A DNA stretch of 64,000 nt from Beverwykella pulmonaria (Eukaryota; Ascomycota; Dothideomycetes; Pleosporales; Melanommataceae): assembly GCA_001599595.1 (NCBI GenBank), contig BCHH01000003.1:627403-691402 (forward strand), given 5' to 3'. The position numbers and the translations under genes were made by a program. Position 1 is the first letter of the stretch; every line of letters begins with the position of its first letter. This document shows positions 8,002 through 33,668 of this stretch, one piece after another. The notes below the pieces were generated by a model. It was given only the letters and a program-made list of their open reading frames with translations. It did not search any database and had not been told where the DNA came from.

Positions 8002-9519
8002 TCAGTACATCTCGTAGCGCCAATTGAGCTGCAACATTTCCTCGGTAACGCCCCCCTTGATGACCTTCGCTATCTCCTCCGGATTGCCCGACTCCATCCG
8101 TTTGTTTTCGCGCAAGACGAGCCACCTGTAACATGTGATTGTGGCTGCAAACAAAAAGGCGCAGCCCATGAGCGTGCCGAAGGCGGCGAAGAATTGCGGA
8201 GGCGCATAGTACAGGTACGAAGCCCAAATGTTCGAGGTCCCGCCAATAGCATTAACAAGGGCAGAGGCTGCTGCGCGCTTCGATACCGGTCGTGCCAGAT
8301 GCAGATTGATGGTTTTGTACAGGACCAGCTGGGGGCCGACGGATGCGAACGGTAAGATCATCATTGAGAAGTAGCGCGCACCGACATTGAGTGTAGCCAT
8401 TGGGATAATGTACATGCCGATGGAGATGGAAATGCACACAAGGATGATCGGGTATGCCGTGTTCTTACGATCCGAGTACCACATGAGGTAGTAGTAGACG
8501 ATGCCAGCGAGGATGTAGGGCGGCGCCGTCAGGACCAAGCTAATGGTACTAGAAAATTTGAGCGAAGACACAAGGGTAGGGAAGTAATTGGCAATGGAGC
8601 CTTGGGCTTGGGATAGCAGGTTGCAAAGGATGAGCAGCAAGAGCTTGGGATCAGACAGAGCTTTACCGAAGCCCTTGAACACGCTCTCGTTCTCCGTTCC
8701 TTCTGCGGCGCCCGACTCGGATTCGATACGCCAGACCGCAAGATCACGCTCTGTCTGCGAGAGGATGCGGCTGTTGTGCGGGAACTCGGGCATAAGGAAT
8801 GCGCAGACGGTTCCAATCCCCACAGTTGCCGACCCTTCGATAATGAAGAGCCACTGCCAGCCTCGAATTCCGTGTGCTCCGTCGAGTTGGAATACAGCTG
8901 CGGCGAAGAGCCCACCGAAAGCGTTACCGAACTGCTGCGCAATGTACAGGCTTGCAATCCGCTTGCCGAGCTCAAACTTGGTGTACCAGGCAGAAAGATA
9001 GTAAATTGCCCCTGGAAAGAAAACTGCCTCGGCAATACCGAGAATAGCCCGGACCGTGAGCAGCTGCCCGTAACTTTGAACAGCCGCCGTTGCTGCCGAA
9101 ATCGAGCCCCAGATCACCACAGCAACACAGATGTACATGCCCGGGCGTGGGACCTTAGTAATGATGAGGTTGCTGGGGATCTGGAATGGTAGGTATCCAA
9201 CAAAGAGGATCGAAATTGACGTGGCGAATTGCTGCGTCGTCATGTTGAGATCGTCCATGATGCCTTGGAGCTTCGCTGCTGCCAAGTTCTGGCGGTCGAT
9301 GTAGTTCAGGATGTACAAAATGCCGATGATAGGTAGGATGATCAGGTCAATCTTGCGGACTAGCTTGTGGTTCAGTTTTGCGATCTCTTCGTCGCTCAAG
9401 TGGCTGAGGGACTCGGGTACCCGTCGGTAGGGTTCGCTAATGCCTTCGATATGGGACGAAGTGGTCGTTTTGGCGTTGTCCAGGGGGATGCCGATGGTCA
9501 TGTCCTTGGTGGTGTCCAT
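8002..9519 (-). CDS. MFS permease, anion:cation symporter (ACS, Dal5/Tna1-like) family
   Basis: Uptake permease of the plasma membrane, intronless, 505 aa, which is the usual ACS length. An acidic cytosolic N-terminus of about 55 residues leads into TM1 (KIDLIILPIIGILYILNYID), whose NYIDRQNLAAAK loop is the ACS hallmark. Other family features are the FVGYLPFQIPSNLIITKV helix, the AILGIAEAVFFPGAIYYLSAWY helix and FRAWQW-like GIRGWQWLFIIEGSAT before TM6. The central loop carries the usual acidic/Arg linker. Family members carry allantoate, nicotinate, ureidosuccinate, pantothenate or other small carboxylates, so the substrate is not predictable. It diverges from the HpaI aldolase over a 784-bp spacer that has three GAGCTC boxes. 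Confidence 0.92.
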   Translation of the reverse strand: MDTTKDMTIGIPLDNAKTTTSSHIEGISEPYRRVPESLSHLSDEEIAKLNHKLVRKIDLIILPIIGILYILNYIDRQNLAAAKLQGIMDDLNMTTQQFATSISILFVGYLPFQIPSNLIITKVPRPGMYICVAVVIWGSISAATAAVQSYGQLLTVRAILGIAEAVFFPGAIYYLSAWYTKFELGKRIASLYIAQQFGNAFGGLFAAAVFQLDGAHGIRGWQWLFIIEGSATVGIGTVCAFLMPEFPHNSRILSQTERDLAVWRIESESGAAEGTENESVFKGFGKALSDPKLLLLILCNLLSQAQGSIANYFPTLVSSLKFSSTISLVLTAPPYILAGIVYYYLMWYSDRKNTAYPIILVCISISIGMYIIPMATLNVGARYFSMMILPFASVGPQLVLYKTINLHLARPVSKRAAASALVNAIGGTSNIWASYLYYAPPQFFAAFGTLMGCAFLFAATITCYRWLVLRENKRMESGNPEEIAKVIKGGVTEEMLQLNWRYEMY

Positions 9520-9882
9520 GGCGGTGTCTACGGCAGTGTTTAGAGAGGTATGCCGTTTATGTTAAAGACGGAATGGCAAGAAGATACCGTTGGCTCAAAA
9601 GATGCGTCAACCAAAAGTGCGAAAGGAGAACAAGGGCGAGGGCGACGTCTTGCCTGCTTTGCCTGGTTGAACTCTGGGCCTCTTCATTATGAAGAGCTTT
9701 ATGTTATTCTGATGTTCAGCTATCATTGAATGAGAGGGAGGAGCGTCGTAGCGTTATCTTCTTAGCTTCATTCGGTGGCTATTCGGTGCGAGCTAGGGTA
9801 GCCCCGGATACCTTATCACCGATCGAGTCTGACGTCTGGGGTGCATGGCTTGGCCCAACGGCACGACCCTACCTTGGCGATG

Positions 9883-9892
9883 GAGCTCCTCC
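9883..9892 (+). promoter_or_regulatory. GAGCTCCTCC element, copy 1
   Basis: Exact 10-mer; the flanks extend it to GGAGCTCCTCCC. It lies about 365 bp upstream of the permease start and 410 bp upstream of the aldolase start. Confidence 0.5.
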
Positions 9893-9967
9893 CTCCATAT
9901 TTCCCGAGGTTGGGTTCGACTTTTGTGAGGCTGAAGAGAAATATTGACTGTGCAGAAACGAGGCACG

Positions 9968-9984
9968 GAGCTCTGAGCTCCTCC
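9968..9984 (+). promoter_or_regulatory. Double GAGCTC with GAGCTCCTCC, copy 2
   Basis: GAGCTC at 9968-9973 is followed one base later by GAGCTCCTCC at 9975-9984. Two half-sites side by side suggest a dimeric or two-finger binding site. Confidence 0.5.
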
Positions 9985-10303
9985 TTGTGGGGCGATAAGC
10001 TGCATCTGAGTCTTTTCGCGAGGAGGATTGAATTAATAGTGTGCCCTTACAGACAATGTAGTACGCAAAGAGGTAACCAAATTTCATCATAGAGTAATCA
10101 GCTCTTTACTACTTTAGAGAACGTACGATTTTCCTTCTACGTGAATGCACGTCTCAGCATTCTTCCTCGCTCTTTCATACTCCTATTCATCTACCAACAA
10201 GAACAAAAATCATCGTCAGCTCAAACTCCACACCCTCTGACAACATACTCCAACAAAACTCACCACCATCTCACATCTACACCCACGCACCCCAACCACC
10301 ACC

Positions 10304-11128
10304 ATGAGCCCCCACAAAATAACACTTGAAACTTACCCCACCGCCCACACAACCACCATCTCAAATCCTCGCCTCCGCCTCCTGAACAAAATCAAAGCCG
10401 GCGACTTCCCCCTAATGACCTTCGTCGCCATCCCCTCGGTCCGCCAAGCCCAAATCGTCGCCTTGACCGGTCTCGATGGCATTATCCTTGACTGTGAACA
10501 CGGCCACATCTCCGACGACTCAATGCACAACTCCGTGGCCGCCATATCTGCACTCGGCGTGTCACCCGTGATCCGCATCCGCGGCCCTGCACACGATATC
10601 ATCAAACGGGCCCTCGATACTGGCGCACATGGCATCATGGTACCACAGATCAACAACGCAGAGGAGGCGGAGCAAATCGTCCAGAGCTCCAAGTTCCCCC
10701 CGTACGGCGTCCGAGGACAAGGCTCCGCGTTCCCAGCCATTGGCCACGGGCTCACAACACCAGAGTACATGAAATCTGCCAACGAGACCATCGTCACCAT
10801 GATCCAGATCGAGACGCGCGCTGGCGTCGAGAACGTCGATGCCATTGCCGCCGTGCCCGGCGTGGATATGCTGTTCATTGGGCCCAACGATCTTGCGCAA
10901 TCACTCCTTGGATATGTGCCTGCTCGGGGAGACGAACCCGAGTTTGTGGAGGCTGTTGATAGGATTATTGAGGCGGGGCGCAGGCATGGGAAGTGGGTGG
11001 GACGAATGGTTAATGATGGGGCGGCAGCAAAGGTTGCTAGGAAAAGATATGACACTGTTGCTATTACGGGCGATACGAAGGCGATTCAGAATTGGTATAT
11101 TTCTGAGTTTGAGGTGGCAAGATCGTGA
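10304..11128 (+). CDS. HpcH/HpaI-family class II aldolase (2-oxo acid aldolase)
   Basis: Metal-dependent aldolase that cleaves 4-hydroxy-2-oxo acids to pyruvate (or a related 2-oxo acid) and an aldehyde. Single exon, 274 aa, close to bacterial HpaI/GarL/RhmA length. Motifs in order: DCEHGH at about residue 63 (catalytic His region), IRIRGP, GAHGIMVPQINNAEEAEQ, PPYGVRG, MIQIETRAG with the metal-binding Glu, and DMLFIGPNDLAQSLG-type DMLFIGPNDLA with the metal-binding Asp. No organelle signal is obvious. It diverges from the ACS permease, which could supply its substrate. The closest activities could be a 2-keto-3-deoxy-sugar acid or 4-hydroxy-2-oxoglutarate type; the sequence does not decide. 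Confidence 0.93.
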   Translation: MSPHKITLETYPTAHTTTISNPRLRLLNKIKAGDFPLMTFVAIPSVRQAQIVALTGLDGIILDCEHGHISDDSMHNSVAAISALGVSPVIRIRGPAHDIIKRALDTGAHGIMVPQINNAEEAEQIVQSSKFPPYGVRGQGSAFPAIGHGLTTPEYMKSANETIVTMIQIETRAGVENVDAIAAVPGVDMLFIGPNDLAQSLLGYVPARGDEPEFVEAVDRIIEAGRRHGKWVGRMVNDGAAAKVARKRYDTVAITGDTKAIQNWYISEFEVARS

Positions 11129-12131
11129 TGAGAAAGAGATCGGGTACAGGAAGAGGAAAGAGTACTTGAGGTGAAGGTTATGCAACGTATATCAAGTGTT
11201 ATGAGGTGGAAAAAGTGATAGAATACATATCAATTCTTCAGTACAGTCAACTCCCATTAAAGCGATCGCCGATAAGCGCCTTGGAAACATTCTCAACCTG
11301 AAAAATTTCGCACTTACCCCAACTAACGATATATCGCCTCTCATACTCAAAATATCGCTCTATCAAACACTACTCCACTATGACTCCTGCCCTTCATAAG
11401 CCTATCTTACAGGCTGAATGACAAGCCCTACGACGCTATTACGCCAATACAAAGCCTCGCCCACGCCAGAGGGATCTTATCGCATTGTTCTTCATCCGCA
11501 AGCAGCCAGTCCACTATCTCTGAGTCGCTTAGCAATAACTCTAAACACCTACCACCAGCCGACATATCGTACACATGAGAGCAAGTGGCTACTGCTTAAG
11601 AAGATCCTCTCCTTGTGGTAACAATAGTTTAAGGTACAGGGTGCAAGGGTAATATACTGTGTACTATTCCCCACGCGAATTAGCTTAGTGTTGATTGCTT
11701 GTACCTTTTGGTGGTTGCTTAGTGGACCGATTGCACTTTTCTGCGACGTGACTGAATAGTTCTTTATATCAGCCTCTTCTCTTAGAGAAGGTTCTTCTGT
11801 CGACCGCATGAACACTAACGAGGGCACTTTGACGAATGCACTACGACATTGAATCTTGACACGGCAGTCTTTTCATCCTAATGATTTTTGGCTATTTGTG
11901 CAAGACCGCTCGTCTCTGAATCTCCAGGCTAAGCTTGTACCATGTATTGAGGATCTGTTTGTATTGTTTATTTGCACGAGGTCAGCTACTCGTTGGCGTA
12001 TTTTTCATTGCTTTTGTTCATGCATTTGGTCCAAGATTACCTTGTCAAGAAGCGTAGATTGCGGATGGCACAGGAACTCCATGCAGAAATTCTTCCATCT
12101 ATTCTTCATCCATTCCCTTTCCCAACACCTC
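11129..12131. other. Intergenic with transposon relic
   Basis: Spacer of 1 kb between the aldolase and RidA genes, which converge here. About half of it is the pogo-type relic at 11244-11754. I see no gene in the remainder. Confidence 0.5.
11244..11754 (+). mobile_element. Pogo/Fot (Tc1-mariner superfamily) DNA transposon relic
   Basis: The left end CAGTCAACTCCCATTAAAGC is preceded by the dinucleotide TA. The right end, read on the other strand, begins CAGTCACGTCGCAG and continues with AATCGGTCC..TAAGC, a diverged match to the left terminus (AAAGCGATCG..ATAAGC). Between them a broken frame from 11380 reads MTPALHKPILQAE, stop, QALRRYYANTKPRPRQRDLI and, after a frameshift, TISESLSNN. That is the N-terminal helix-turn-helix layout of CENP-B/pogo transposases. 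The element is only about 510 bp, without a DDE domain, so it is an internally deleted non-autonomous copy. The right TA duplication is not clean. Confidence 0.65.
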
Positions 12132-12600
12132 CTAAACCTGCGCAATACACTCAATCTCAATAACCGTCCCCTGTCCCGGCGCTACTGCCTGCAAACAACT
12201 TCTTGCTGGCATTGGTTGCGGCAAAAACTCAATATACACTTGATTCATCGCCGCAAAGTCCTTCATATCCGCTAGATACACGTTATATTTCACTACCTGC
12301 TCGAGAGAAGATCCCGAGAGCTCGAGGACCTCTTTGAGGTTTTGGAGGACCGTTTTCTGTAGTCTGTTAATTGGTGATGAGTGAGTTGGAGGGCTGGAGG
12401 GGAGGTTTACGGTTGCTTGCTTGATTTCCCCCGTCGCTGTTTGGCCAGCGCAGAAAACTAGGCCGGGAACTTTAACGGCAGGACCTGCATGTTTCGTCAG
12501 AGAATGTCACAAGGAAAAGCCTCTCATAGCTTTTCAGTCGGCACTTGCAGTTGTGAGGCTTGGTAGGAAATTTATCGCTTGAGATGAGTTGCCGAGACAT
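12132..12600 (-). CDS. RidA (YjgF/YER057c/UK114) family enamine/imine deaminase
   Basis: Hydrolyses reactive enamine/imine intermediates released by PLP enzymes or amine oxidation. Exons 12549-12600, 12411-12484 and 12132-12356 give 116 aa. Seen are MSRQLISSDKFP at the start, AVKVPGLVFCAGQTATG, KTVLQNLKEVLELSGSSLEQVV, KYNVYLADMKDF and MPARSCLQAVAPGQGTVIEIECIAQ at the end. The Arg of PARS is the catalytic substrate-binding residue, and the Glu of IEIE fits the trimer-interface pattern. Intron 1 stays in frame only with a GC donor (GCAAGT, 12548-12543) and a CTGAC branch site. The joined product lacks the usual GPYSQ stretch and is about 12 residues short, so exon 1 may be mis-set or the gene slightly decayed. 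Divergent from the 2OG oxygenase. Confidence 0.8.
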
Positions 12601-12804
12601 GTTTGCTGAAGAATGTGAAATATATGTCGTCCAAAATTGTAACGATATCAAGGAAGGCGGTGAAAAAGATGCAAGTGTTGAAGAGAGATGTGGATGTGAA
12701 TGTGAATGTCCAAGTCTCAAATGTCAACTAGAGAAAGGATAATATCTCCATAGCCCCAGCGAACGAATTCTCCTTATCTTCAAACTTGCTGTTGTTTTCT
12801 TCAT

Positions 12805-12814
12805 GGAGGAGCTC
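12805..12814 (-). promoter_or_regulatory. GAGCTCCTCC element, copy 3 (reverse)
   Basis: GGAGGAGCTC on the plus strand is the exact reverse complement of the 10-mer in the permease/aldolase promoter. Confidence 0.5.
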
Positions 12815-12880
12815 ACGCACGCACGGACTTCCAACAAAAGACCCGCCACTATGGTCCTCCGGGAATGACCTGGGCGATCT

Positions 12881-12896
12881 GGGAGGAGCTCCTCCC
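12881..12896. promoter_or_regulatory. Perfect 16-bp palindrome GGGAGGAGCTCCTCCC
   Basis: It carries the GAGCTCCTCC element in both orientations, so it is the strongest candidate operator. It lies 281 bp upstream of the RidA start and 393 bp upstream of the oxygenase start. Confidence 0.55.
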
Positions 12897-13288
12897 ACGC
12901 CAAGCGGCTAACCGCATTAGTCCTCACTCCTCCGCCCTCACCACGCGTATGGGTTGGGAGCTCTCATTATCGTAGTGAGTGAGCATGTGGTTTTCCAGAA
13001 GCGGAGGAGTAGAGTTGAAGGATGGACAAGAGCGTAATTGGAGAATGGACAAGGATGATGGCGCACTGAATGAATATCCCGTGTCGATTGTTTGGGAGAC
13101 CGAAACGTCAGTCTCTTGCCAGGTGGTACGATTCTCTCGTTGTCCCGAAGAGCTCAATTGACATGTAGAAGGTATAAGAAGAAAAGTTTCAACCGTATAC
13201 CAGTATCAGTCAAAACTACCAGTACCTACTTTCCAATATTCCTTAGCATTTCATTTACCCTCATACATAGCACATTCAAACCATCACC

Positions 13289-15171: not shown

Positions 15172-17316
15172 TCACTTTTCTAGCGTATTTATACATGTCA
15201 AAATAATCTTGCCTAGCTGCCATGGCTCTCTACACCGAAACACCTTTCGTGCCCAGATCAACGCTCCCTCTACATCCCCATCAAGGACACCAACGACTTG
15301 CATGCCTCCCGATATTCCTCCTTTCACGAGTTGCCACGCAATCATGAATGCCTTATACGCATACAACGTAATCCACGGCGCCTCCGAGTCCGGCACGCCT
15401 GTGGTGTCGAGATAGCGCAAGAACCAATCGACGTGTGGCTGAATAGACTTTGCGGTATTGGATTTGCGGAGGAACTCGATGGATGGCGCCAGATATGTCA
15501 TCTGATGCAACACTGCATCGATGCTGCCTTCCACAATGCCGCCAGTGTGCGATGATGACCACATCTGCATCTCTATCATGGCCGCCTCCCACGTTGCCTC
15601 GCACAACGCTGTATGCGGTGCGTTTGTTGTTTGGGAAGACGGCGAACAGATGAATGGGTTGAGAGCAAGCAGCGATGCCCTCAGGGGTTCCAGTCGGTCC
15701 ATGCTGAGCATCCCCGTCATAGTGGACCAGCCGGACACTTCGCGAGCGCTGGAAACTAGAAATTGTGTAATGTTGATGGCACCGTAGGGATCAAATGCGG
15801 GGATTGAGTGGAGGTCATCGGACGAGAGAAAGCGTCGGACAGCATCCGTATACCGTATCCACGAACCGTGATGCTTGGCGACTAGTCGCCGATGTGCCCA
15901 CTCTCCGGACGAGGACGCCGTCCAGTAGTCTTCTGGGCAGGGTAGATCGTGCTTGATTTCTAGATGTGAGAGAGAACGAGGGATGGATAAGAATTGGTAC
16001 CACAGCGTATCGATTTGATGTACAGCGAACACTGTCCGCTTGTGTGACTCAGCCTTGATGAAGTGTCGCCATAGGGAATCCAGATCTTCGGTTGCGGTAG
16101 ATTCGATGGATATTGGCTGCATTAAACCGCCGGATCGTGCAAGAGAAATCATCTTGGAGTGCGTCTTGAGTCCGTATGCTGAGTCATCGCCACAGGAATA
16201 CAGCATGGCATAGATCTGAAGTAGCAAGTACGCTTGAACTAAGGTGACGGAATGTGTAGAGCTAGCCGTCCTCTCCTTATCAGAAGCGATAAGGGGTTGA
16301 ACTTGTTGGAAGCAACGCGCAGACAAACTTTTACCCGAGCCTTCTTGATAGCTGCAATCTGGATCCTCGCCGTACTGATACGATAGGCAAAGCATGCTGA
16401 GGAGCAGGTGATTGGGGATTTGAGTGGAGTTGAATGTTGGTCGGTGAAGGAAGGGCACAAAATGCGAGACGTAGGCGAAGAAGAGATGACAGCCCCATGC
16501 AACCTGTGCACTGGAAGGAAGCCAGTTGTCTTGTATCTGTGACATGTCCATGGATAATAGGCTGTTGGACATGCTTTGGTCGAAGTCGAAGCCGGGAACA
16601 TTTGTATTGTACGAAGCAGGTTGAGAAATGTTTCGAGGATGCATCGGTGTACTGAGTCGATGATCATGATCAAGAAAAGCGCTCTCCAATATCAGGTTCG
16701 AACTCATATCCGTCGAATTTTGCGGAATGGGGCGGATACCAGTCGACTTGCTCATGGATGTTTGTTGGGCGAATGGACCTGTGGTGACGATTTGGCTGTC
16801 ATCCCCTTCAGTGCTAGAAGGTGCACCAGGCCACATTCCGCTATCCATGTCCAGCGGCGATAGAGAAGGCGCCTCTCCTTGAGGACTTCCTCCATGGCCC
16901 CTTTGCGTGGGTGTGTGCATGTCGCGCTGTGGCCTTTTCCTAGTCCGTTTCCCGGGGTTCTCATCTTGGTCGAGATGTTTCCTCTTCATATGCCGATGAC
17001 GTAGATCCGGGCGTGAGAACGTAGCATAGCATATTTCGCAAGCGAGCGTGGCCTGGTTTGGCGAACGTGAGTGAAGCGCAGCATGTCGCTTCAGGTTCTC
17101 ATGCCTGGTGAAGCGACATTGACAGATGGGGCATTGGAATGGTTGGGTGGATAGCCGCTCTTGGAGGATGGTAGACACAGTGGAGACAGACATGACAGAC
17201 ACAAGGGCAGTATTTTGGTTGTATGAAGATGCATCGATCAGTCCTGACATCGGGGTTGGGAGCGCGTCTCCATCCCCGCAATCTGAAGCGCGGCGCATTA
17301 TCTTTCCTACTAGCAT
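15172..17316 (-). CDS. C2H2 zinc-finger transcription factor with fungal-specific regulatory domain
   Basis: Nuclear regulator, intronless, 714 aa. Two adjacent C2H2 fingers lie at about residues 60-82 (FQCPICQCRFTRHENLKRH..H) and 91-114 (LACEICYATFSRPDLRHRH..H). They are followed by a basic stretch (KRTRKRPQRD) that can serve as nuclear signal, then a Ser/Pro-rich linker. From about 270 to 640 an alpha-helical middle-homology region typical of fungal Zn regulators is recognisable (WGCHLFFAYVSHFVPFLHRP, LLLQIYAMLYSC, WRHFIKAESHKRTVFAVHQI). It sits next to the permease/aldolase and RidA/oxygenase pairs and is the natural candidate regulator of the shared GAGCTCCTCC element; RHENLKRH-type fingers commonly read G-rich triplets. 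That link is inference. Confidence 0.9.
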   Translation of the reverse strand: MLVGKIMRRASDCGDGDALPTPMSGLIDASSYNQNTALVSVMSVSTVSTILQERLSTQPFQCPICQCRFTRHENLKRHAALHSRSPNQATLACEICYATFSRPDLRHRHMKRKHLDQDENPGKRTRKRPQRDMHTPTQRGHGGSPQGEAPSLSPLDMDSGMWPGAPSSTEGDDSQIVTTGPFAQQTSMSKSTGIRPIPQNSTDMSSNLILESAFLDHDHRLSTPMHPRNISQPASYNTNVPGFDFDQSMSNSLLSMDMSQIQDNWLPSSAQVAWGCHLFFAYVSHFVPFLHRPTFNSTQIPNHLLLSMLCLSYQYGEDPDCSYQEGSGKSLSARCFQQVQPLIASDKERTASSTHSVTLVQAYLLLQIYAMLYSCGDDSAYGLKTHSKMISLARSGGLMQPISIESTATEDLDSLWRHFIKAESHKRTVFAVHQIDTLWYQFLSIPRSLSHLEIKHDLPCPEDYWTASSSGEWAHRRLVAKHHGSWIRYTDAVRRFLSSDDLHSIPAFDPYGAINITQFLVSSAREVSGWSTMTGMLSMDRLEPLRASLLALNPFICSPSSQTTNAPHTALCEATWEAAMIEMQMWSSSHTGGIVEGSIDAVLHQMTYLAPSIEFLRKSNTAKSIQPHVDWFLRYLDTTGVPDSEAPWITLYAYKAFMIAWQLVKGGISGGMQVVGVLDGDVEGALIWARKVFRCREPWQLGKIILTCINTLEK

Positions 17317-17751
17317 AATCCTCGAACGTCAATTGGACCATTCCTTCTTATCGCTTACCCACATTGCCGCTGACTCGTCTTCGGGCCGATCATTCATCGG
17401 TGTTTGAGTAGCAGTTTGCAGATGCCGGGCTAGTTATTCATCCCATCGCTGCGCCCTTTCTTTGCCTTATAGCTTATCTAGTGGCTAGACGAACTAGAGT
17501 AAGTTGTTATAGATGTGAAAGAGAATGTTATAAAACTGCGGGTTTATCGTCTTAGTAATACTATTAGCATTCGATGTTTCCAAGCTTCCATAGAATACAC
17601 CATCCGTGACCAGATTACTAGTCAACGTATCCAAACAGAATGCTATCTACGGCCAAAGTCTACCCGTCACGTCCCAAGGATCTATGTCAAAAAATCCCTA
17701 TGCCAAAGAAAACCCCCTTCTCTATGTTGTTACCGAATGTTGTGTTTCTTC
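17317..17751. other. Intergenic, regulator promoter
   Basis: About 435 bp upstream of the C2H2 gene and downstream of the MFS gene. I see no GAGCTCCTCC copy, repeat or gene. Confidence 0.45.
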
Positions 17752-19780
17752 CTAATTGTCTCTTTTGACACTGCCGTCCCCCATCCTAACCTCGCCCTCC
17801 AACAATACCTCATGCCCACTCCCTTCCCGCACCCCCTGCGCCACAATACACCCGACGACTGCCACAATAGCCATTATCCACCACGCCAGCCCCACAACCC
17901 CCATATCCAGGCCTCTGCCAAATATCCAGCCTCCCATAACCGGGCCAAATGTTCGTGTAAGACTAGACACCGACTGACCAATCCCATGCACCGTGCCAAG
18001 CACGCTCGGGTGTGGAGAGGCGTTATTAATTAAGATAGCGGTGCAAGGAAGGGCGAAGGTACGAGCTAAAACCTGTATGAATAAGACCACGGTGATGGCA
18101 GCCCAAATGAGGGCACCCGAGACCCCAGCAGGCGGTTTGGACCAGCTGGGCACTATACTCAAGAATGGAGCTAATGCATACGTGATTGGAAACAAGGCCA
18201 GAAAGATTCTATAACTCTTTGCAGCGCCGAGTCGATGACTTAGTCGCGGGTAGACAAATAGCTGCAGGGTGATTCCGATGATGCCGAGGATAGCCAGGGC
18301 AAGTCCAATGCGTGGCGGCGGAAGTGCGAGGCCACCCGTGAAATGGATGAGACCATGAGGTTTGTAGTTAGGGGGCTGCGGATGTGTGGGGTCAAAGCGT
18401 GGGGCGGAGAGGAAGATGAACCATAGGGAGTTGAAGGTGCCCACGTGCATGGCAAGTATGCCGTGGGCAAAGAGGGTCATAATCAAGTTGCGCGTCCAGA
18501 TTTGGCGAAAAGGAAGCACTCGTCGCAATAGAGGCTTGTCCCCAGCAGGTGTTTCGGGTCGTGTGGAGGTGGGCGTTTGTTGTAGCTCCATATCCTGCAC
18601 TTCCGATGACGTGGAGGGGACAGCGGAATATCCATCTGTATTTCTCTGGCGGAACACGTGCCGGCGGATCCAGCGGCCCATACTGAGAGGGTAGTCCGGG
18701 ACATGTTTGCACAGCTCGCTAGTCTCTTCAAGGAACAGAAGTACGCTGATGGTGGATACTAGAAGAAAGATGGCGCTCATAAGGTTGGGAAGGGCGTAGG
18801 GGTACTTCTTCATCCAGTGCACGCCGTCTTTACCTCCTATTGGAGATCCAGGTCCGAAGACTGAGGGATAGCTGCCTACGGGATCAGCCAGGAGCCCGCC
18901 TATTCAAATCAGCTACAAAAGGTCATGGGGTGGCAGGGCACATAGGCATACCCAATATGGGCCCAATGATAACCCCAATGTTGAAAGTCATAGGCATGAT
19001 CAAAAAAGCCCTTGACTGATACTTCTTCTCCTTAATAATTTCGCTGATCATGGTTCTCATAACCCCGATATTCCCGTTGAGGATTCCTCCCATACACCTA
19101 AAAAACACAGCCATGGGGAAGCTATTCGAGAATCCGAATCCAATTATCGAGAGCATAGTCCCCAAAAGCCCGAACCAAATAACTCTTTTCCGGCCGCCAT
19201 GTTCCGAGTCGGCAAAGCGGCCCCAGAGGATAGCAGTCAGGAACTGTGCCGCGGGGAATGCTGCCTGAATGATGCCAGCTTGTGAGGAAATTGTGGAGTC
19301 GGGAAGGCTTGGATCAAAGGACTTGAGCTGGTAGAAGATGTATGCACCCAGTGAAGTTTGGGTCAGAGGCTCTGATAGGCGCGCTAGACTCAATACGAGG
19401 AGTTGGTCTTTTCGAGGTAATGAATGCCATGACACAAAATTTTCTTTTGCAGCCTCGAATTTTTCGGTTTCGTCGGCATGCGGGAGGGCCAAACCGGCTT
19501 GCGCGCTGGTCTTGAAGATGAGGTTCCGGGGCTGCCGATCTCGGCTTGATGAGCGCTTTGTACTTGATTCGTCGTCGCTTAGGTCCAAGGTGTTAGTACT
19601 ATTGCCCCCTATGAGGAGACCTCGCTCTCCATACTCTATGTGCTGTTTCCAGGACGACTTGGTTATGCTCCCTCTAGACGAGGTGAAGTCGGAGTCGGAC
19701 CCCGCATCCTCCGAAGCACTCGTAGAGTTGGTCCCCGACTTATTATTCAAGCTCATCAGAATATGATATCGATATCCCAA
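17752..19780 (-). CDS. MFS transporter, DHA1/ZIFL-like exporter type
   Basis: Plasma- or vacuolar-membrane drug:proton antiporter-like protein. Exon 1 18952-19780 and exon 2 17752-18899, around a 52-bp GT-AG intron, give 658 aa. A long Ser-rich cytosolic N-terminus (about 110 residues) precedes TM1 (DQLLVLSLARLSEPLTQTSL). Then come RFADSEHGGRKRVIWFGLLG, a variant of the MFS motif A loop, and IGVIIGPILGGLL (motif C, typical of exporters) split by the intron. A long central loop (about 345-420) is followed by six more helices (TM7 near MTLFAHGILAMHVGTFNSLWF) and a short basic tail. Met10 could also be the start. It lies beside the putative catabolic cluster but lacks the shared motif, so membership is uncertain. 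Confidence 0.9.
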
Positions 19781-20491
19781 TACCCAAGTGGACTAACAAA
19801 GGCCAACTTGAGAGAACAGAGAATTAGAGATAAGGGGAAAAGAAGTCTTGGGAAGGCACACGACTTATCAGCACTGGAAGAAAGCGCGAAAAGCTACTGC
19901 ACAGTCAGTCGGGAGCTAGATCGATGGGCCGGTTAACGCATGGCCACAGTCCACTACTGATTTCTATTGGTGTTGAACGACGCCTGCTATTCATCACATG
20001 CAGCAGGATGCCGGTCCAGCCGTAAGAGGCGTGGGTCTCGACGTTGGTGGCGGGGAAATATCGCACCGGAGCCAAGCATGGCTTCTCTGGAGGCGCGTGG
20101 ATGTTGAAGATGAGGAGAATTTATCGAAGCTTTCACTTCAGAACTTATATTCGGGTTGGTATTGGGCTACCAGTATAGTATGGTACCATGTTGGGTGTGC
20201 CTGGGAGAAACAGAAATTGTGGACAGCCGAAAAAAAGGTGAAGCGCTAAGCCGAAACAGGCAAGCCGATTCCGGAGCTGAACCCCGCGACGATCGACCAT
20301 TTTGCCGTTCTCTCGTCTCAATAGTGGCTCCTCCGTAAGGTCCTCGGGAATGGTAGCATTTTGCTGTCAAAGCAAATCATTTAATTATATATCCCAAGAT
20401 TGCTTAGTATAGTCAGTTACTAAAAGCAGAAGGATGAATTCAAATTTCTACCTCAGGGATTCTCAGATCAATAATATACCCTGAATCTATA
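19781..20491. other. Intergenic, MFS promoter side
   Basis: About 710 bp upstream of the MFS transporter. No gene or repeat is recognised. Confidence 0.4.
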
Positions 20492-25871: not shown

Positions 25872-28496
25872 TTACATTCCAACAAAGTTCCACTTCAAAT
25901 CTCGAGCGGCAGCTCCTCTAATGGTTATGACTTTCCTCTCCTCCGGCACAAGATCAAATCCGTTGTCATCTAGTTTTACCCCTTGTTTTTCCCTGAACAC
26001 AAATCCTTTGACAGGTCGTTTTGCAGAAACGGTTACTCTTGAGCTATCGCTTGAAAATTCTACTTGGACTCCGCGGTCTAAAAAGTTTAAGTATTTAATC
26101 GGGTCGGGCCAAGAAACGTCTGTCGCTACTGCTTCTCCTTCGACACTCAAAGAAGCGTGGATAACGAAGGGGTCTACCCTCGACGTGTCGAACGGACTAC
26201 TTGCGTCTCGAGCTCCTGGTAGTTTCATCTTTCGGCCTTTGATCACTTCTGTGGTCCCATTCGCCTCAATCTTGACGTCTTCACCCAGTGATGGGTGGAT
26301 GTCTTCGCCAGTACGAACGGAAATAAATCGCACTACGATCTTCCCATCGACGGTTGTCACCTTATTGCTTGCTACCCATACATCAAACTCGATATTTTCC
26401 CATATTTTTTTCATGTCCACATGGCTTGTATCCCGATTCCAAAGCTCGTCTGAATGCCTCATTGTCCAATTGTTGAACTTTCTCGTCACTCCAACTACGA
26501 CTGGCTCCATTGCGCGCTTGATCGCGTAATATGCGGGTTTCGGAACAAGATAGTAATCGACCACCGCCCAGGATATTGTCGGCCAGCAATCGTTCAGTTG
26601 CCAGACCAACACGCCGCCACACCCTCTATTCCCCGCAGTACCCCACTGTCTCCGCCATGACTTGTACGCCCACAGCATTGCATCGGCTTGCATGATCTGC
26701 GTCAAATGCGTAAACCCGGACAGATCGTATTTGATTTTGAAATTCTCGGCCACATATGACACTAGTCGGCGTTCATGCCCAATCGCTTTGTTCCGGAAAT
26801 CCATTGCCATTGATCCAGGAAATCTATCTTCTTCACGCGTGATTGACTTCTCAAGCGTTTCCGTGTGTGGGTATGCCTCCATACCAAACTCCGATACGAA
26901 CCGACCACCTATTTCGGGGAGCTGTTGATACGGCTTCATGTTCCCATGCCACACATTCCACTGATGCACATCGCCAATCTTCGGATCTACTTTAAGAGTG
27001 GTACTCGTCCCGTTGCCGAAGGGAGAGCTTGGATGATATGGCACGCCTACTGTCTCTTCTGACACGATCTTGGGTAATAGATACTCGTAAAAGTACCGCG
27101 CAGGGAAGTCAGTCTTAAGCCATGACTCGGGATTCTTGTCCTCCTCATACCGATACTCAAGTCCGTATCTCTCCACAATCTGGTAGTCCTCGTTATTCCC
27201 ACACCAAACTACGATGCTCGGGTGATTGCGCAGCCTCTGCACATTCTGTCTTGCCTCTTCCTCTACGGACTTCGCGTACGCGGGATACGCAGGGTAGTTG
27301 GCACATGCGAACATGAAATCCTGCCACACTAGCAATCCGAGCTCATCAGCTGCTTCGTAGAAGGCGTCATGTTCGTAGATCCCACCACCCCATACTCTAA
27401 TCATGATTTGGTTTCCAGCAGCGGCAATCTCCATCCAGTTTCGATACGTTTCCGGGGTCACTTGCGATAGGAAGGAGTCCGTGGGTATCCAGCAGGAGCC
27501 TCCAGTGAAGATGTCGGTGTTGTTGATGCAGAAGTAAAACGAGGTGCCAACTGTATCTTTCTTCTGGACGAGCGCGACTTTGCGGAAACCCATAGCCTTG
27601 GTGACCTCGTCTACAATATTGCCATTCTCTATAACCAGTTTCGCAGAAACGTGATAGAGCGACTGCGGACCGTACCCCCGCGGCCACCATAGATCGACAT
27701 CAAGCTCGAAAGGCGCTACAAAGACACCATCCTCCGCTTTACCATCCAGCTTTGCGACGATACCTTTTTCGCCAGACTTTCTAATCTCGAACTGCACCTT
27801 TCCTTTTGCTCCGGCGACCTTCGCGAATAGCATCCCCTTTGCACTCTTTAGATCATCACTAAGCTCATATTCAGACCATACATCTTCAAAGCACACAACA
27901 AACGTCTCAAGCACGATCGGCTTCCACGGCCCACAAGTCATCAGTATAGGCCCCCAATCCCAACCCCAATGATACTGCGCCTTTCTCACCGGTCCCCTCG
28001 AGAGCTCCGTCTGATGCACGATAAACCTATGTTCTGGATGCTCCTTCAATAACTCCAACCCCCTCTTCCGTGCCGACTGAAACACAACTTCTAAGACATT
28101 TTTTGCGTCACCATACTTCTTGAGGGTTGCGGTGACATCGATTCGGTGGGATAGGAACATGTTTTCGGCTTCCAGGATCAGTATCCCGTTTAGGTATACC
28201 GAGGCAAATGTGTCCAACCCGCCAAACTCTAGCACGGTCGTCGCACCGGGCTCCCCACTCTTCGAAGGGGTCGCGAAGGAGGTGCGGTACGTCCATGATT
28301 CGTCTGCGATCCAGCGCACAGAGAGCTCGTTGAGGTTCTTGAAGGGGTGGGCGATTTTGTCGTTCTTTAGTAGGTCCCGGTGCACGTCCGTAGGCAGATC
28401 GTTAGCGGGAAGGTATTCTGATCCAGAGTCGAGGCCCCCTTGTTTGAATATCCAGTTGGAGATGAGACTTAGCGAGGTGCGTGGAATTGTTGCCAT
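25872..28496 (-). CDS. Beta-mannosidase (glycoside hydrolase family 2)
   Basis: Exo-acting enzyme releasing mannose from the non-reducing ends of manno-oligosaccharides. Intronless, 874 aa from Met at 28496 (MATIPRTSLS); an in-frame Met at 28514 and open frame to 28589 exist but look non-coding. GH2 layout: sugar-binding jelly roll (GSEYLPANDLPTDVHRDLL, DTFASVYLNG, SHRIDVT, RGPVRKAQYHWGWDWGP), Ig-like domain, then the TIM barrel with RVWGGGIYEHDAFYEAADEL, the acid/base Glu in VVWCGNNED and the nucleophile Glu in RFVSEFGMEAYP. No signal peptide is visible, which fits the intracellular MndB-type clade that hydrolyses imported mannobiose. It diverges from a sugar porter over 434 bp containing CreA-like boxes. 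Confidence 0.95.
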   Translation of the reverse strand: MATIPRTSLSLISNWIFKQGGLDSGSEYLPANDLPTDVHRDLLKNDKIAHPFKNLNELSVRWIADESWTYRTSFATPSKSGEPGATTVLEFGGLDTFASVYLNGILILEAENMFLSHRIDVTATLKKYGDAKNVLEVVFQSARKRGLELLKEHPEHRFIVHQTELSRGPVRKAQYHWGWDWGPILMTCGPWKPIVLETFVVCFEDVWSEYELSDDLKSAKGMLFAKVAGAKGKVQFEIRKSGEKGIVAKLDGKAEDGVFVAPFELDVDLWWPRGYGPQSLYHVSAKLVIENGNIVDEVTKAMGFRKVALVQKKDTVGTSFYFCINNTDIFTGGSCWIPTDSFLSQVTPETYRNWMEIAAAGNQIMIRVWGGGIYEHDAFYEAADELGLLVWQDFMFACANYPAYPAYAKSVEEEARQNVQRLRNHPSIVVWCGNNEDYQIVERYGLEYRYEEDKNPESWLKTDFPARYFYEYLLPKIVSEETVGVPYHPSSPFGNGTSTTLKVDPKIGDVHQWNVWHGNMKPYQQLPEIGGRFVSEFGMEAYPHTETLEKSITREEDRFPGSMAMDFRNKAIGHERRLVSYVAENFKIKYDLSGFTHLTQIMQADAMLWAYKSWRRQWGTAGNRGCGGVLVWQLNDCWPTISWAVVDYYLVPKPAYYAIKRAMEPVVVGVTRKFNNWTMRHSDELWNRDTSHVDMKKIWENIEFDVWVASNKVTTVDGKIVVRFISVRTGEDIHPSLGEDVKIEANGTTEVIKGRKMKLPGARDASSPFDTSRVDPFVIHASLSVEGEAVATDVSWPDPIKYLNFLDRGVQVEFSSDSSRVTVSAKRPVKGFVFREKQGVKLDDNGFDLVPEERKVITIRGAAARDLKWNFVGM

Positions 28497-28575
28497 GATG
28501 CCGCCACTGCCCATGCTGAAAATGAGTCTAGGAGGTGATGTTGAAACTGGTAACGTATACCACAAATAATAGACA

Positions 28576-28863
28576 CCCCACAGCGCCACAAGCGACCGTT
28601 TTTATGCCTGCCTCCGAACAACGATTCAGAAGCAATTCAAACGTGGCTAGGATGCAGGATGCGGGGCTTCGCTCTTCTCTCTGTGGGGTAATGATCACCA
28701 CTAGCCATCTCATGTCACAATCACCAACCATTCCTTCGGGCAAAAGACTTCCGACACCCCGAGAGAGCGGCAGGAATCAAGAATCGAGCTCTGTAACGAT
28801 AAGATACGACGTCGCACCAATATAAAAGCATGGGTACCGAGTGCCTGGGAGTGAGTTGTGGGG
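28576..28863. promoter_or_regulatory. Four CreA-like boxes in the beta-mannosidase / sugar-porter promoter
   Basis: Matches to the carbon-repressor consensus SYGGRG occur at 28576-28581 (reverse GTGGGG), 28661-28666 (GCGGGG), 28683-28688 (GTGGGG) and 28858-28863 (GTGGGG), all within the 434-bp divergent spacer. The consensus is short, so single hits mean little; four close together suggest glucose repression of the pair. Confidence 0.4.
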
Positions 28864-28930
28864 AAGCTGTCAGACCTCAATCTCAACGACCCCGCATTTC
28901 ACCACCACAGATCGTTGAAGGTCAAGCATT

Positions 28931-30838
28931 ATGGCAGACGAGAGGACAACCGATGCAGAATATGCTGGCGAGAAGAAATTGACTGAAGATGGAAAAAAGA
29001 TCATTGAAGAGGGTGAGCTAGAAGGAGTGAATCCGACCTTCACAGCTATCATGGCGAAACACAAGCCGAACCCGTGGGGAAAGGGACATCTCCAGTTGTA
29101 CGCGCTGTGTGCCGTCATATTCCTAAATTCAACCATGAGTGGTATGTCTGCTTCGGAATTCCGTCTGATCAATGTTGCTGATCATTTGCCCAAGGCTTCG
29201 ACGGCTCACTAATGGGCAGCATAAACGTTCTGCCAAACTACACAAGCTACTACCACCTTCCCACAAAGGGAACCGCATCCACGGGCATTGTCTTTGCCAT
29301 CTACCAAGTCGGCCAGATGACCGCTGCACTGTTCGTATGGATAGCAGATTGGCGCGGTCGGAAGCAGATGATGTTCGTTGGAACAATAGGGGTCGTTTTG
29401 GGCACTATTATCACCGCGACTGCGCAGAAACTCTCTGTTTTCATTGGAGGAAGGTTCCTACTAGCGTTTTTTGCGACTTTGGCTTGTTCAGCGAGTCCAC
29501 TCTATCTAGTTGAGATTGCGCCGCCGCAGTATCGTGGAACACTTGCCGGGTTGTACAACACCTTCTACTACTTCGTAAGTATAAATCTCTTAAACATGAA
29601 GACGACTAACGGACCAACTAGGGATCCATCCTCGCCACCTCCGCCGTATACGGCGCCCATAAACATTTATCGGACAGTAACCTCGACTGGCGCCTGCCCC
29701 TCTGGATCCAAATGGTCTGCCCCGCTCTCGTCTCCTGCATCATCCTCTTCTTTCCCGAATCTCCGCGCTGGCTTGTCGGCAAAGATAGGCATGAAGAAGC
29801 ACTCGCCTTCCTCGTAAAGTACCATGCAAACGGCGACCCTGACCATCCTCTCGTCGCACTTGAAATGAGCGAGATGGTGGAGTCCCTAAGGCAAGACCCA
29901 GTCACGCATTGGCGCAACTTTTTTGATTTAAGGGTCCTATATAAGACGAGAGCGAGGAGGTATAGGACAATGCTCAATATGACTTTTGCGTGGTTTGGCC
30001 AGTTCTCGGGAAATAAGTGAGTACCACCTAAACATTGTAGACATCTGGGCGTAGGACGCCACAAGGCTTAGTCACCATGTACTAATATCTCACAGCGTCG
30101 TCTCCTATTACCTTCCCTATCTCCTCGCAAACGTGGGCATTACCTCAGCTGATACAAAACTCCTCCTCAACATCATCTACGCACTCGTTGGTTACATATT
30201 CTCCTCCGCCGGTGCACGCTTGCACGACGTCTTCGGGCGGCGCAAAATGCTTCTCGGGTCTACCGCTGGCTTAATTGTTGCCTTGAGCATCACTGCAGGC
30301 ACGGCGGCAGGATACGTCAACACCGGGAGTAAGACATCGAGCTCAGCTTCTATTGGTTTCATCTTTGTGTTTGGCGCGATCTTTGCATTTGCCTTCACTA
30401 GTATGCAGCCGATTTATCCTGCGGAGGTTATGAGTAACGATATGAGGGCTAAAGGTGCGGGGACGTATAAGCTTGTCGGTGGATGTGCCAGCTTCATCAA
30501 CACGTTTGCGGCCCCGATCGCATTGTCTAATGTAAGCATTCGCTCGTCACTTCCTTCTCCTCTCCCTTCCTCTTTCCCCCACCACGAATCACAGACTCAG
30601 ATTTATGATCTAGATTGGCTACTGGTTCTACGTCTTCTTCATCTTCTGGGACATGTTCGAATTTGCATTCATGTACTTCTTCTTCGTGGAGACGAAGGGC
30701 CTCACTCTTGAGGAGATGGATGATATTTTTGAGGCGAAGAATCCGAGGAAGGCGAGTACAGAGAAAAAGAGGATTAAGGTTAGGACTGTGGTTGCGGAAA
30801 ATGGGAAGGTCGAGAGTGAGATTAGGGAGGTAGTTTAA
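28931..30838 (+). CDS. Sugar porter (MFS, lactose/oligosaccharide permease-like)
   Basis: Proton-coupled sugar uptake protein of the plasma membrane. Five exons (28931-29141, 29195-29574, 29622-30016, 30096-30531, 30614-30838) give 548 aa with 12 predicted helices. Sugar-porter signatures: [18 protein letters not shown] at TM1, WRGRKQMMF (motif A), [11 protein letters not shown] and [26 protein letters not shown] after TM6, VFGRRKMLL in the central half, [14 protein letters not shown], and [17 protein letters not shown] at the end. The N-terminus is a hydrophilic 70 residues, as in fungal lactose-permease-type transporters. Divergent pairing with an intracellular beta-mannosidase points to mannobiose or manno-oligosaccharides as cargo; that is inference from context. 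Confidence 0.93.
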
Positions 30839-32652
30839 TGGGATGAAGAAGGGCACTCGATTAGTTGATTTGTACTATCGAAATATAGTGGTGTGAGTCC
30901 AATTTCAAAAGCATCCGATGGTTTTTCTAGATGGACGCCTTGTGTGAGATAATCCAAGACTTTATACATCCGATTCAAGATCAGGCAGATATCGAATCTC
31001 ACGCGAGAGATATTGGGTTATATGTATGCAACTTTCGAGTCTCACTCTGCCCATGATACAGAAGAGCGAAAACACAATTATCACTGTAAAGTGAATAGTC
31101 TGGCGCGGATTAGATAAACAGAGTCTTGTATTCGGCTAACGAAAATCGTCCTAACTAATTACCGGGCCGTGTCCGCATTGTCAACCCCGCGTGAGTTTGA
31201 AACGGAAGCACACTCGCTGCCATTGGGTCCAAAATCATTGGTTTATTTGACTATACCATCAAGAGGGTTGTCAAGATTTGATAATGGGTCTTGATGGTAG
31301 TTAACGGTGACATAGTCTATAGTAGAATATCATGATAGAGGTTATCGTTGGCTCTGACGGCCTCGAAGGTGCCAGATAAGAGACCTACCTCCTCCTTTCG
31401 GACGTGGTAAAAGGCTCGATCCTCCTCTCTGAGTTGTTGTCAGTTGGTGGTTCTACTGGTGCGCTAGTAATCTACCAATCACGTAGATATACCACGGACC
31501 AGCTATGTCCTCTGAACTAACTTATCATGTAAGCCCAGGACACCATACTGTCACGTGGATATGCCACTGACTAATCAGTCCGTCATATATATATCAGCTG
31601 TACATACATCACATATTTTCCCTTACCACAACTTTCATTACAGATATTATCAAGCAGTTGAGAATAAAATAGTCGATGACACATTGCCGGAATACAAATA
31701 ACTGACGGAGGAATTGGTACAACCATCCTAGTCAACTAACCAGACGTGCCAACTAAATTTCTTGAATCTACGATTTCCTTTGGTTTAGGTCATGGATTCC
31801 GACTAAATTATAACAAGAGGATACATGTTAGAAGACTTCGAAGCTATGAGGTTTTCACAAACTGATAATTACATTAACGGCAGAAGTTACCTCCTACGCG
31901 AACACTTTGCTTTTGATTTACAATCCAATATACACGCGCTATTTTGGTTTTGTTCATTCCACACAGACTTCTATAGTGTCACTCGCATTCCATTTCCCCT
32001 ATTCCTCACGAGCATGATGTTCATTTCACGTTATTCCGACATGCTAATTTTCCCATAGATGAGTTCGGCATGAAATGATGCGGATTAATACTAAGCGCTT
32101 GAAACTTTGACAAAATTTCCCATTTTGTGAACGTGGGAAGAAATTGGGGCAGTGGGTGGGACGACATGATCTGTCACGTTTGGTGGAGGCTAACAACTCG
32201 CACGAGAACCATATACCTGAAACAACGCCAGGTTGGAAAGGGCATAGATCACTTGTGCTTTGCACCATTTTAAGAATAGCACGCCTGAGTTGACGTGAAT
32301 TTGCAGGGGCACTCGCATCTTGTATCTTTCCTCCTGGAGGGTCCCATGCATGGGAAACACAATAATGTGACAGCTTATCACTTGAAACCATAACGCCGCA
32401 CACGTTCAGCTTTTTTCAGGACCTAGTTAAACGCCCAGTTAGTTATAGGAGCGGGCTTTAAATGAAATGGTCGGGGTTGTCGCTAGTCAAATCAAGATCG
32501 AGACGGCGCAGGATTGCTAAAGCGACCAGTGCATGGGCTGAAAGCTGAGCTGACTGTCATATTTTAAAGCATATGTCCCCTGTGGATGCGTCTTGAGTTT
32601 CAATACTCTCATCTATCATTCCAACGCATTCTGAATACTCAATTACACAGTG
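30839..32652. other. Intergenic with an LTR-like repeat
   Basis: About 1.8 kb. It holds the repeat at 31528-31642. Just before it, at about 31478-31515, TCACGTAGATATACCACGGACC resembles the repeat core with G-to-A changes. No gene is seen. Confidence 0.45.
31528..31642 (+). repeat. LTR-like repeat copy, damaged 3' end
   Basis: Starts TGTAAGCCCAGGACACCATA and shares TCACGTGGATATGCCACTGA, CTAATCAGTCCGTCATATAT and CAGCTGTACATACATCACAT with the other copies. The last 40 bp diverge and end CATTACA. The five bases on the left (TATCA) are not repeated immediately at the right end; TATCA appears 6 bp further on. Confidence 0.65.
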
Positions 32653-33668
32653 ATGGCGGCACTAAAGAGTTTATGGACACAGTGGTATCCCCCGGCAGCC
32701 ACCTTCACGGACAAAGACCTTCACAACCAAAATGGAAAAGTGTTCATCATCACAGGCGCAAATGGCGGCATCGGTTTCGAACTCGCTAAAATGCTGTATC
32801 CTACTGGTGCGACTATATATATGGCTGGGCGCTCTGAATCACGAATGAAGACGGCCATTTCCACAATTCGATCGGCTGTCACGACGACCACCCCAGCAAC
32901 GCTAAAATTCCTCTACATAGATTTGGCAGATCTAAGAAGCGTGAAGAAATCTGCGGAGGAATTCGCGAATCAAGAAACAAAGCTGGACATTCTTTGGAAC
33001 AACGCCGCGATAGGTGTGTTGTCACAATTCATTGAATATCTCAGATCACAATTGATTCAACAACAGGCGGCGCCCCGAACGGCACAACAACCACACAAAA
33101 TATAGAAGCCCATATTGGAACAAACTGTGTCGCGCCGCTTTTATTCACGCAGCTTCTGCTACCCCAGCTTCGCAACGCAACAAAGGATGCACCTAAGGGA
33201 AACGTTCGTGTCATTTGGACTGGTTCTGCAATGGTGGACTCTCACTCTGTTCAAGGCGGTATCAACTTCACATCCATCGCAGCGGGCAAAACAACAAGCT
33301 CGAACTCGGATTATGCAGCTAGCAAGGTCGGCAATTGGTTTCTCTCCATAGAGGCTGCAAAAGCGTGGGACGGGTTCGGCATTGTGTCGGTGGTGCAGAA
33401 TCCGGGGAACCTGAATACTGAGGCGTATCGCTATCAACCGTGGCTCTTTAGGTGGATCTTGAAACTGCTCGCTCTGCATGATGCCAAGTATGGTGCTTAC
33501 ACAATGCTATACTCGGCGTTCAGTGAAGAGTTGAGAAATGGAGATTACATTTGGCCATGGGGAAGAAAAGCGCGGAGTGAGAGGAAAGACATACATCAGG
33601 CGATTGAAAAAGGAGCTCCTGAACGGTTTTGGAAGTGGTGCGAAGAGCAAGCCAAACCCTATGCATGA
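32653..33668 (+). CDS. Short-chain dehydrogenase/reductase (retinol dehydrogenase-like)
   Basis: NAD(P)-dependent oxidoreductase. Two exons (32653-33013, 33067-33668) with a GT-AG intron give 320 aa. Rossmann motif TGANGGIG at about residue 37, an Arg after beta2 (MAGRSESR) favouring NADPH, cofactor motif NNAAIG spanning the intron, Ser in WTGSAMV, and catalytic YAASK. The N-terminal extension (LKSLWTQWYPPAATFTDKDL) is typical of fungal members annotated as retinol dehydrogenase-like. Substrate unknown. Its neighbours are repeats and a sugar porter, so context gives no function. Confidence 0.9.

What the first reader, a model, noticed from the sequence alone, without database searches (positions are those of the whole stretch)
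9883..12896. Exact 10-mer GAGCTCCTCC shared by two divergent promoters
The sequence shows GAGCTCCTCC at 9883, 9975, 12805 (reverse) and 12882/12886 (both strands of one palindrome). These lie only in the two spacers that separate permease/aldolase and RidA/2OG oxygenase. The hexamer GAGCTC occurs 7 times in these 1,472 bp, where about 0.4 is expected in random DNA. The aldolase and RidA coding regions and a transposon relic lie between, so this is not one duplicated block. It suggests a common regulator and ties four genes into one regulon.
Basis: partly seen in the sequence, partly recalled or inferred. Interest (0 to 1): 0.8.

Follow-up and report, generated by a model that had tools for sequence, protein, structure and literature searches.

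The report
Shared control element in fungal promoters
Two neighbouring two-way promoters in a fungal metabolic gene cluster carry the same short DNA word, and the word fits the predicted target of the zinc-finger regulator encoded beside them, so the cluster is probably one small regulon; this is a tidy example of a known kind of gene control.

Summary
GAGCTCCTCC lies at 9883+, 9975+, 12805- and 12882-/12886+, and GAGCTC occurs 7 times in the two spacers against 0.37 expected from intergenic background. The word is not rare genome-wide: 208 copies, against 200 for the reversed control. What is unusual is the clustering. No other 3-kb stretch among the 208 copies holds more than two. The two other pairs within 300 bp lie inside long reading frames. 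The palindrome GGAGGAGCTCCTCC occurs once in 45.6 Mb.

The neighbouring regulator (15172-17316, minus strand) has two C2H2 fingers plus PF04082. By the finger code, which I recalled and did not compute, it should read 5'-GNGGAG, and the element contains GAGGAG. Locus tags and shared contigs link the regulator, aldolase and 2OG oxygenase in other Pezizomycotina.

I judge it most likely an operator of this regulator, controlling permease/aldolase and RidA/2OG oxygenase. The closest known case is HxnR of the nicotinate regulon; as far as tested this is not that cluster. No binding or expression data exist here, and orthologous promoters could not be read.

The parts
9883..9892 (+). element copy 1, GAGCTCCTCC (GAGGAG read on minus strand)
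9975..9984 (+). element copy 2, GAGCTCCTCC, with another GAGCTC just before it at 9968
12805..12814 (-). element copy 3
12882..12895 (.). perfect palindrome GGAGGAGCTCCTCC = two elements face to face; the only copy in the genome
9737..9743 (+). GGAGGAG half element without GAGCTC
10020..10025 (+). GAGGAG half element without GAGCTC
12927..12933 (-). half element, CTCCTCC on the plus strand; overlaps a CreA-type match at 12930
13003..13009 (+). GGAGGAG half element; overlaps a CreA-type match at 13001
9520..10303 (.). divergent promoter A (permease / aldolase), no second copy found in the genome
12601..13288 (.). divergent promoter B (RidA / 2OG oxygenase)
8002..9519 (-). MFS permease (PF07690; best NCBIfam matches D-galactonate transporter and HpaX, both below cut-off)
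10304..11128 (+). HpcH/HpaI aldolase (PF03328) in one reading frame of 274 aa, up to 89% identical to other fungal proteins
12132..12600 (-). RidA-family deaminase (PF01042); my model has two introns, the first GC-AG, 116 aa
13289..14659 (+). 2OG-Fe(II) oxygenase, 4 exons, 401 aa; up to 88% identical to other fungal proteins
15172..17316 (-). C2H2 (two fingers) + PF04082 regulator, 714 aa from the first Met (start not determined); no close paralogue in the genome

Best explanation
GGAGGAGCTC (read back as GAGCTCCTCC) is the operator of the pathway regulator encoded at 15172-17316. Finger 2 (R-L-R) reads G-N-G and finger 1 (R-N-R) reads G-A-G, giving 5'-GNGGAG, which is present in each element as GAGGAG. 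The trailing CTC is the finger-1 triplet of a second, inverted monomer. So the palindrome at 12882 would be a full dimer site and the other copies one-and-a-half sites. The 10-mers sit 205-474 bp from the start codons, within both divergent promoters, and would switch permease + aldolase and RidA + 2OG oxygenase together. SHOWN: the copies, their unique clustering, the finger residues, the linkage of regulator, aldolase and oxygenase in other fungi. INFERRED: binding, dimer geometry, co-regulation, and that the pathway is catabolic (uptake, oxygenation, aldol cleavage, imine/enamine clean-up). The finger code is recalled, not computed.
For: Word clustering unique among the 208 genomic copies. 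The two other pairs within 300 bp are inside 1177-aa and 308-aa reading frames. Ranking of words shared by both spacers puts words of this element first at k = 6, 7 and 8, and 0 of 5,671 background chunk pairs share any 10-mer twice in each. GAGGAG 9 found, 1.1 expected; GGAGGAG 8 found, 0.3 expected. Finger helices RHENLKR / RPDLRHR; the residues at -1, 3 and 6 are R-N-R and R-L-R in all 105 homologues whose fingers parsed, of 120 listed, 15 not parsed. By my arithmetic from the density, a 10-mer holds GNGGAG by chance in about 1% of cases. HxnR, a regulator of the same architecture, was predicted to bind GHGGGG or GNGGDG in the hxn promoters (PMC8478523, passages).
Against: Single copies are no commoner than the reversed control genome-wide (208 to 200), and palindromes with up to one mismatch neither (17 including the perfect one, control 18), so there is no sign of a wider regulon. 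The regulator's own upstream stretch (17314-17751) has no GNGGAG, so no autoregulation through it is indicated. The full finger prediction GNGGAG is only moderately enriched (12 to 3.15), and its non-GAGGAG forms hardly (3 to about 2), so the fingers alone do not explain the fixed GAGCTC. Three GAGCTC copies (9968, 12958, 13150) are not followed by CTCC on either strand. With overlaps removed, 3 of 5,671 background pairs at k = 7 and 22 at k = 8 are as extreme as the spacers. Orthologous promoters were not seen.
Confidence: 0.62

Rival explanations
1. The element is a real shared control site of the cluster but is read by another protein, for example a broad-domain C2H2 or a zinc-cluster factor that recognises the GAGCTC palindrome; the neighbouring regulator uses other sites.
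For: GAGCTC is the strongest shared hexamer (7 found, 0.37-0.39 expected) and three of its copies lack the CTCC part; the regulator's predicted GNGGAG is only moderately enriched as a degenerate motif. CreA-type SYGGRG matches (consensus recalled) overlap the two half elements at 12927 and 13003.
Against: The element contains the finger-code prediction of the adjacent, linked regulator, by my arithmetic a roughly 1% coincidence. None of the eight CreA-type matches in the spacers overlaps one of the five 10-mers. The genome shows no wider use of the paired element, which speaks against a broad regulator.
Confidence: 0.22
2. Chance: a G+C-rich word recurring in two spacers, noticed after the fact.
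For: The word is common in the genome (208 copies), and the search for a striking word was open-ended. At k = 7 and 8, three and 22 of 5,671 background pairs are as extreme.
Against: No other 3-kb stretch holds more than two copies. 0 of 5,671 background pairs share a 10-mer twice in each. At k = 7 and 8 the five best background pairs listed all involve one chunk with an ATTG repeat. The fit to the finger code is independent of the count.
Confidence: 0.1
3. The copies were spread by a duplicated or mobile sequence.
For: A repeated stretch, probably a transposon relic, lies between the two promoters: 11242-11641 has a copy on contig C2, 78% identical over most of it.
Against: Spacer A has no second copy. 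The repeated part ends before spacer B. The longest stretch shared by the spacers is 12 bp, and copies lie in both orientations.
Confidence: 0.06

Closest known systems
HxnR and the hxn (nicotinate) regulon of Aspergillus nidulans (PMC5746545 and PMC8478523: passages and one section each; PMC9304392: passages)
   Same: Pathway regulator with two N-terminal C2H2 fingers plus PF04082, encoded in the cluster; divergent gene pairs thought to share promoters; predicted sites of the form GNGGDG, which includes GNGGAG; a 2OG oxygenase, HxnY, in the regulon. That HxnP and HxnZ are permeases is recalled.
   Different: 714 aa here, 865 in HxnR; HxnR's nuclear-signal sequence was not found in the 120 homologues nor seen in the window's protein; the word aldolase does not occur in the main text of PMC8478523 or PMC9304392, nor RidA in PMC8478523; HxnR's canonical form is not enriched here (GNGGGG 1 found, 2.36 expected); thymine hydroxylase 5c3q, HxnY's nearest structural homologue by PMC9304392, is not in the table of 26 solved sequences matched at 1e-8 by P0242, the 88%-identical homologue of this oxygenase.
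ADR1 of yeast
   Same: Two-finger C2H2 pair (2adr_A matched at 3.6e-6, though many animal zinc-finger chains match better); inverted GGAG-core sites (recalled).
   Different: Finger-1 residue 3 is His in ADR1 (recalled), Asn here, hence GAG and not GGG expected.
niiA-niaD type bidirectional promoter with repeated NirA sites (named in section 8 of PMC8478523, and a reference title in PMC5746545)
   Same: Several sites of one pathway regulator in a shared promoter.
   Different: NirA is a zinc-cluster protein (recalled).

Membership tests
Pathway-specific C2H2 + PF04082 regulator (HxnR-like class) | Two adjacent C2H2 fingers and a PF04082 domain in one protein | tested here: met
   PF00096 at 64-86 and PF04082 at 281-481 of the 718-aa frame; second finger by its sequence, not by a Pfam hit
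Pathway-specific C2H2 + PF04082 regulator (HxnR-like class) | Encoded next to the genes it controls, linkage kept in other species | tested here: met
   Locus tags and shared contigs for regulator, aldolase and oxygenase; linkage only, not control; permease and RidA not tested
Pathway-specific C2H2 + PF04082 regulator (HxnR-like class) | Repeated sites matching its finger code in the promoters of the set | tested here: met
   GNGGAG 12 found, 3.15 expected; GAGGAG 9 found, 1.1 expected; finger code itself recalled
Pathway-specific C2H2 + PF04082 regulator (HxnR-like class) | Binding and inducer-dependent activation | not testable with these tools
   needs bench work
HxnR / nicotinate (hxn) cluster | Orthologue of HxnR | tested here: inconclusive
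   HxnR sequence not at hand, so no alignment; length and nuclear-signal sequence differ
HxnR / nicotinate (hxn) cluster | HxnS-type molybdenum hydroxylase and partner hxn enzymes beside the regulator | tested here: not met
   No molybdenum-hydroxylase, old-yellow-enzyme or phenol-monooxygenase domain in Pfam scans of 50 of the 122 ORFs of 110 aa or more, or parts of them; the other 72 were not scanned. Short-chain dehydrogenases and an FMO-like protein are present but more than 15 kb away

The most novel reading that the evidence does not exclude
An undescribed but old metabolic cluster of filamentous ascomycetes (permease, HpaI-type aldolase, RidA, 2OG oxygenase) has its own C2H2 regulator with an invariant GNGGAG finger code. 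It binds abutting inverted half-sites GGAGGAG|CTCCTCC, a head-to-head two-finger dimer site with no spacer, and this locus keeps the one perfect copy in its genome.
Probability: 0.4. Interest if true: 0.5.

Novelty: new member of a known kind. Interest (0 to 1): 0.38.

Why it matters
If true, the regulator's target can be read straight from the genome, and a conserved cluster for which my searches found no description gains a regulon, a regulator and a testable operator. [quoted passage not shown]

Tried and rejected
Genome-wide regulon by near-palindromes: 17 copies with up to one mismatch against 18 for the control, no enrichment. Orthologous DNA: viral contigs gave no relative; genome contigs gave four bacterial aldolases of 34-38% identity, not followed. 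Literature for the cluster: searches showed no description of this gene set in what I saw (titles and abstract starts; searches returned no paper; 12 of 23 papers listed). CreA as reader of the 10-mer: its consensus (recalled) does not fit and no match overlaps a 10-mer, but two overlap half elements. Transposon spread: rejected. AreA-type HGATAR sites are present, four in A and two in B; about 2.3 are expected in A by my arithmetic, so not argued.

The k-mer ranking counts overlapping words twice in the palindrome (GAGCTCC 8 found, 0.14 expected). With overlaps removed the best 7-mer is CTCCTCC, 8 found, 0.31 expected, and 3 of 5,671 background pairs are as extreme.

Full report
WHAT WAS CLAIMED.

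CHECK. All positions are right. The window lies in a 45.6-Mb genome of 31 contigs, a fungus by its introns and homologues. GAGCTC occurs 33 times in the window, 19.55 expected from shuffles, and 7 times in the two spacers, 0.37 expected from intergenic background. The word is not special by number: 208 copies in the genome, the reversed word 200. I obtained all 208 positions by splitting the word by its next base (63 + 78 + 67) and checked neighbours. Apart from this locus there are six pairs within 3.1 kb and no triple. Two of those pairs are within 300 bp; both lie inside long reading frames, 1177 aa and 308 aa. This locus has five copies at four places in 3.0 kb, all in the two divergent spacers. 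For this word about 9e-5 clusters of four are expected per genome.

AFTER-THE-FACT CHOICE. Because the word was picked by eye, I ranked all words shared by both spacers. Words of this element come first at k = 6, 7 and 8. I then compared 5,671 pairs of background intergenic chunks (107 chunks from about 91 kb, with the selected 10-mers masked). At k = 10 two pairs are as extreme (one CA repeat with 1+4 copies, one word with 3+1); at k = 7 three and at k = 8 twenty-two, the five best listed at each of these two lengths all involving one chunk with an ATTG repeat. No pair shares a 10-mer with two or more copies in each, although 62 of the 107 chunks hold some repeated 10-mer. Chance is unlikely, but the background is small and the pairs reuse the same chunks.

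ANATOMY. Gene order: permease (-), aldolase (+), a repeated relic, RidA (-), 2OG oxygenase (+), C2H2 regulator (-). The 10-mers stand 205-474 bp from the start codons of both partners (in which the permease start was taken 2 bp off). The copy at 12882-12895 is a perfect palindrome, the only one in the genome. GGAGGAG or CTCCTCC also occurs in the spacers at 9737, 12927 and 13003. The relic matches C2 over 11242-11641 (78% in the main piece) and C10 over 11662-11709, and does not include the sites; spacer A has no second copy.

THE REGULATOR. It carries fingers with helices RHENLKR and RPDLRHR and PF04082. With the standard finger code (recalled), finger 1 (R, N, R) reads GAG and finger 2 (R, L, R) reads GNG, so the site is 5'-GNGGAG. 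These six residues are the same in all 105 homologues whose fingers parsed, of 120 listed; 15 did not parse. The genome has no close paralogue: the five other matches are 25-41% identical and confined to residues 275-499. GAGGAG occurs 9 times in the spacers, 1.1 expected. The other GNGGAG forms are not clearly raised (3, about 2 expected), and the stretch upstream of the regulator has none. I read the constant CTC after GAGGAG as the finger-1 triplet of a second, inverted monomer; this is inference.

THE CLUSTER ELSEWHERE. Neighbouring locus tags: Fusarium nematophilum regulator 014976 and oxygenase 014978; Neocucurbitaria 111570 and 111610 (tags probably in steps of ten); Penicillium fimorum regulator 001903 and aldolase 001900; Oleoguttula aldolase 008994 and oxygenase 008996; Xylaria hypoxylon aldolase g431 and oxygenase g429; Conoideocrella aldolase 006353 and oxygenase 006356. 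By equal contig lengths among the 120 listed of 412, 1,123 and 324 hits, regulator and aldolase share 18 contigs (among them 8.8, 9.0 and 13.4 kb), regulator and oxygenase 9 (one of 15.3 kb), aldolase and oxygenase 11 (one of 14.9 kb), all three 3. On whole chromosomes this is weak; on short contigs it is strong. RidA and the permease were not tested for linkage.

PATHWAY. The aldolase matches HpaI and GarL models and the permease D-galactonate transporter and HpaX models, all below their cut-offs. RidA is of the Rid deaminase family, below cut-off in NCBIfam but above it in Pfam. P0242, the homologue used for the oxygenase, matches many plant and microbial 2OG oxygenases at about the same weak level (best 1.8e-15). 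Uptake and aldol cleavage of a hydroxy-keto acid is my guess; the substrate is unknown.

COMPARISON. HxnR is the nearest regulated system: same architecture, divergent promoters, predicted GHGGGG/GNGGDG sites. As far as tested, this locus is not the nicotinate cluster. Whether the regulator is an HxnR orthologue was not settled by alignment; length and nuclear-signal sequence speak against it.

VERDICT. A probable operator of a small cluster-specific regulon.

Noticed in passing
11242-11709: Relic: 11242-11641 matches C2:67715-68169 of the same genome (78% in the main piece) and 11662-11709 matches C10 over 48 bp.
   Followed up: partly
12485-12548: The full-length RidA gene model that I found uses a GC-AG intron (donor GCAAGT, acceptor ATGCAG).
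   Followed up: partly
17752-19792: MFS transporter pieces in two ORFs on the minus strand stand upstream of the regulator; only the 18923-19792 piece gives a Pfam hit.
   Followed up: no
25872-39824: Beta-mannosidase-like GH2 protein (25872-28601) near three sugar-transporter stretches (29182-30711, 35168-36301, 39111-39824), perhaps a separate sugar-use group.
   Followed up: no
2141-2707: Chromo shadow domain (PF01393) in a plus-strand ORF at the window's start.
   Followed up: no
P0243-P0246: In Aspergillus flavus relatives the oxygenase record is 552 aa with extra domains PF21485 and PF01287 (eIF5A-type, recalled), probably a gene-model fusion.
   Followed up: no
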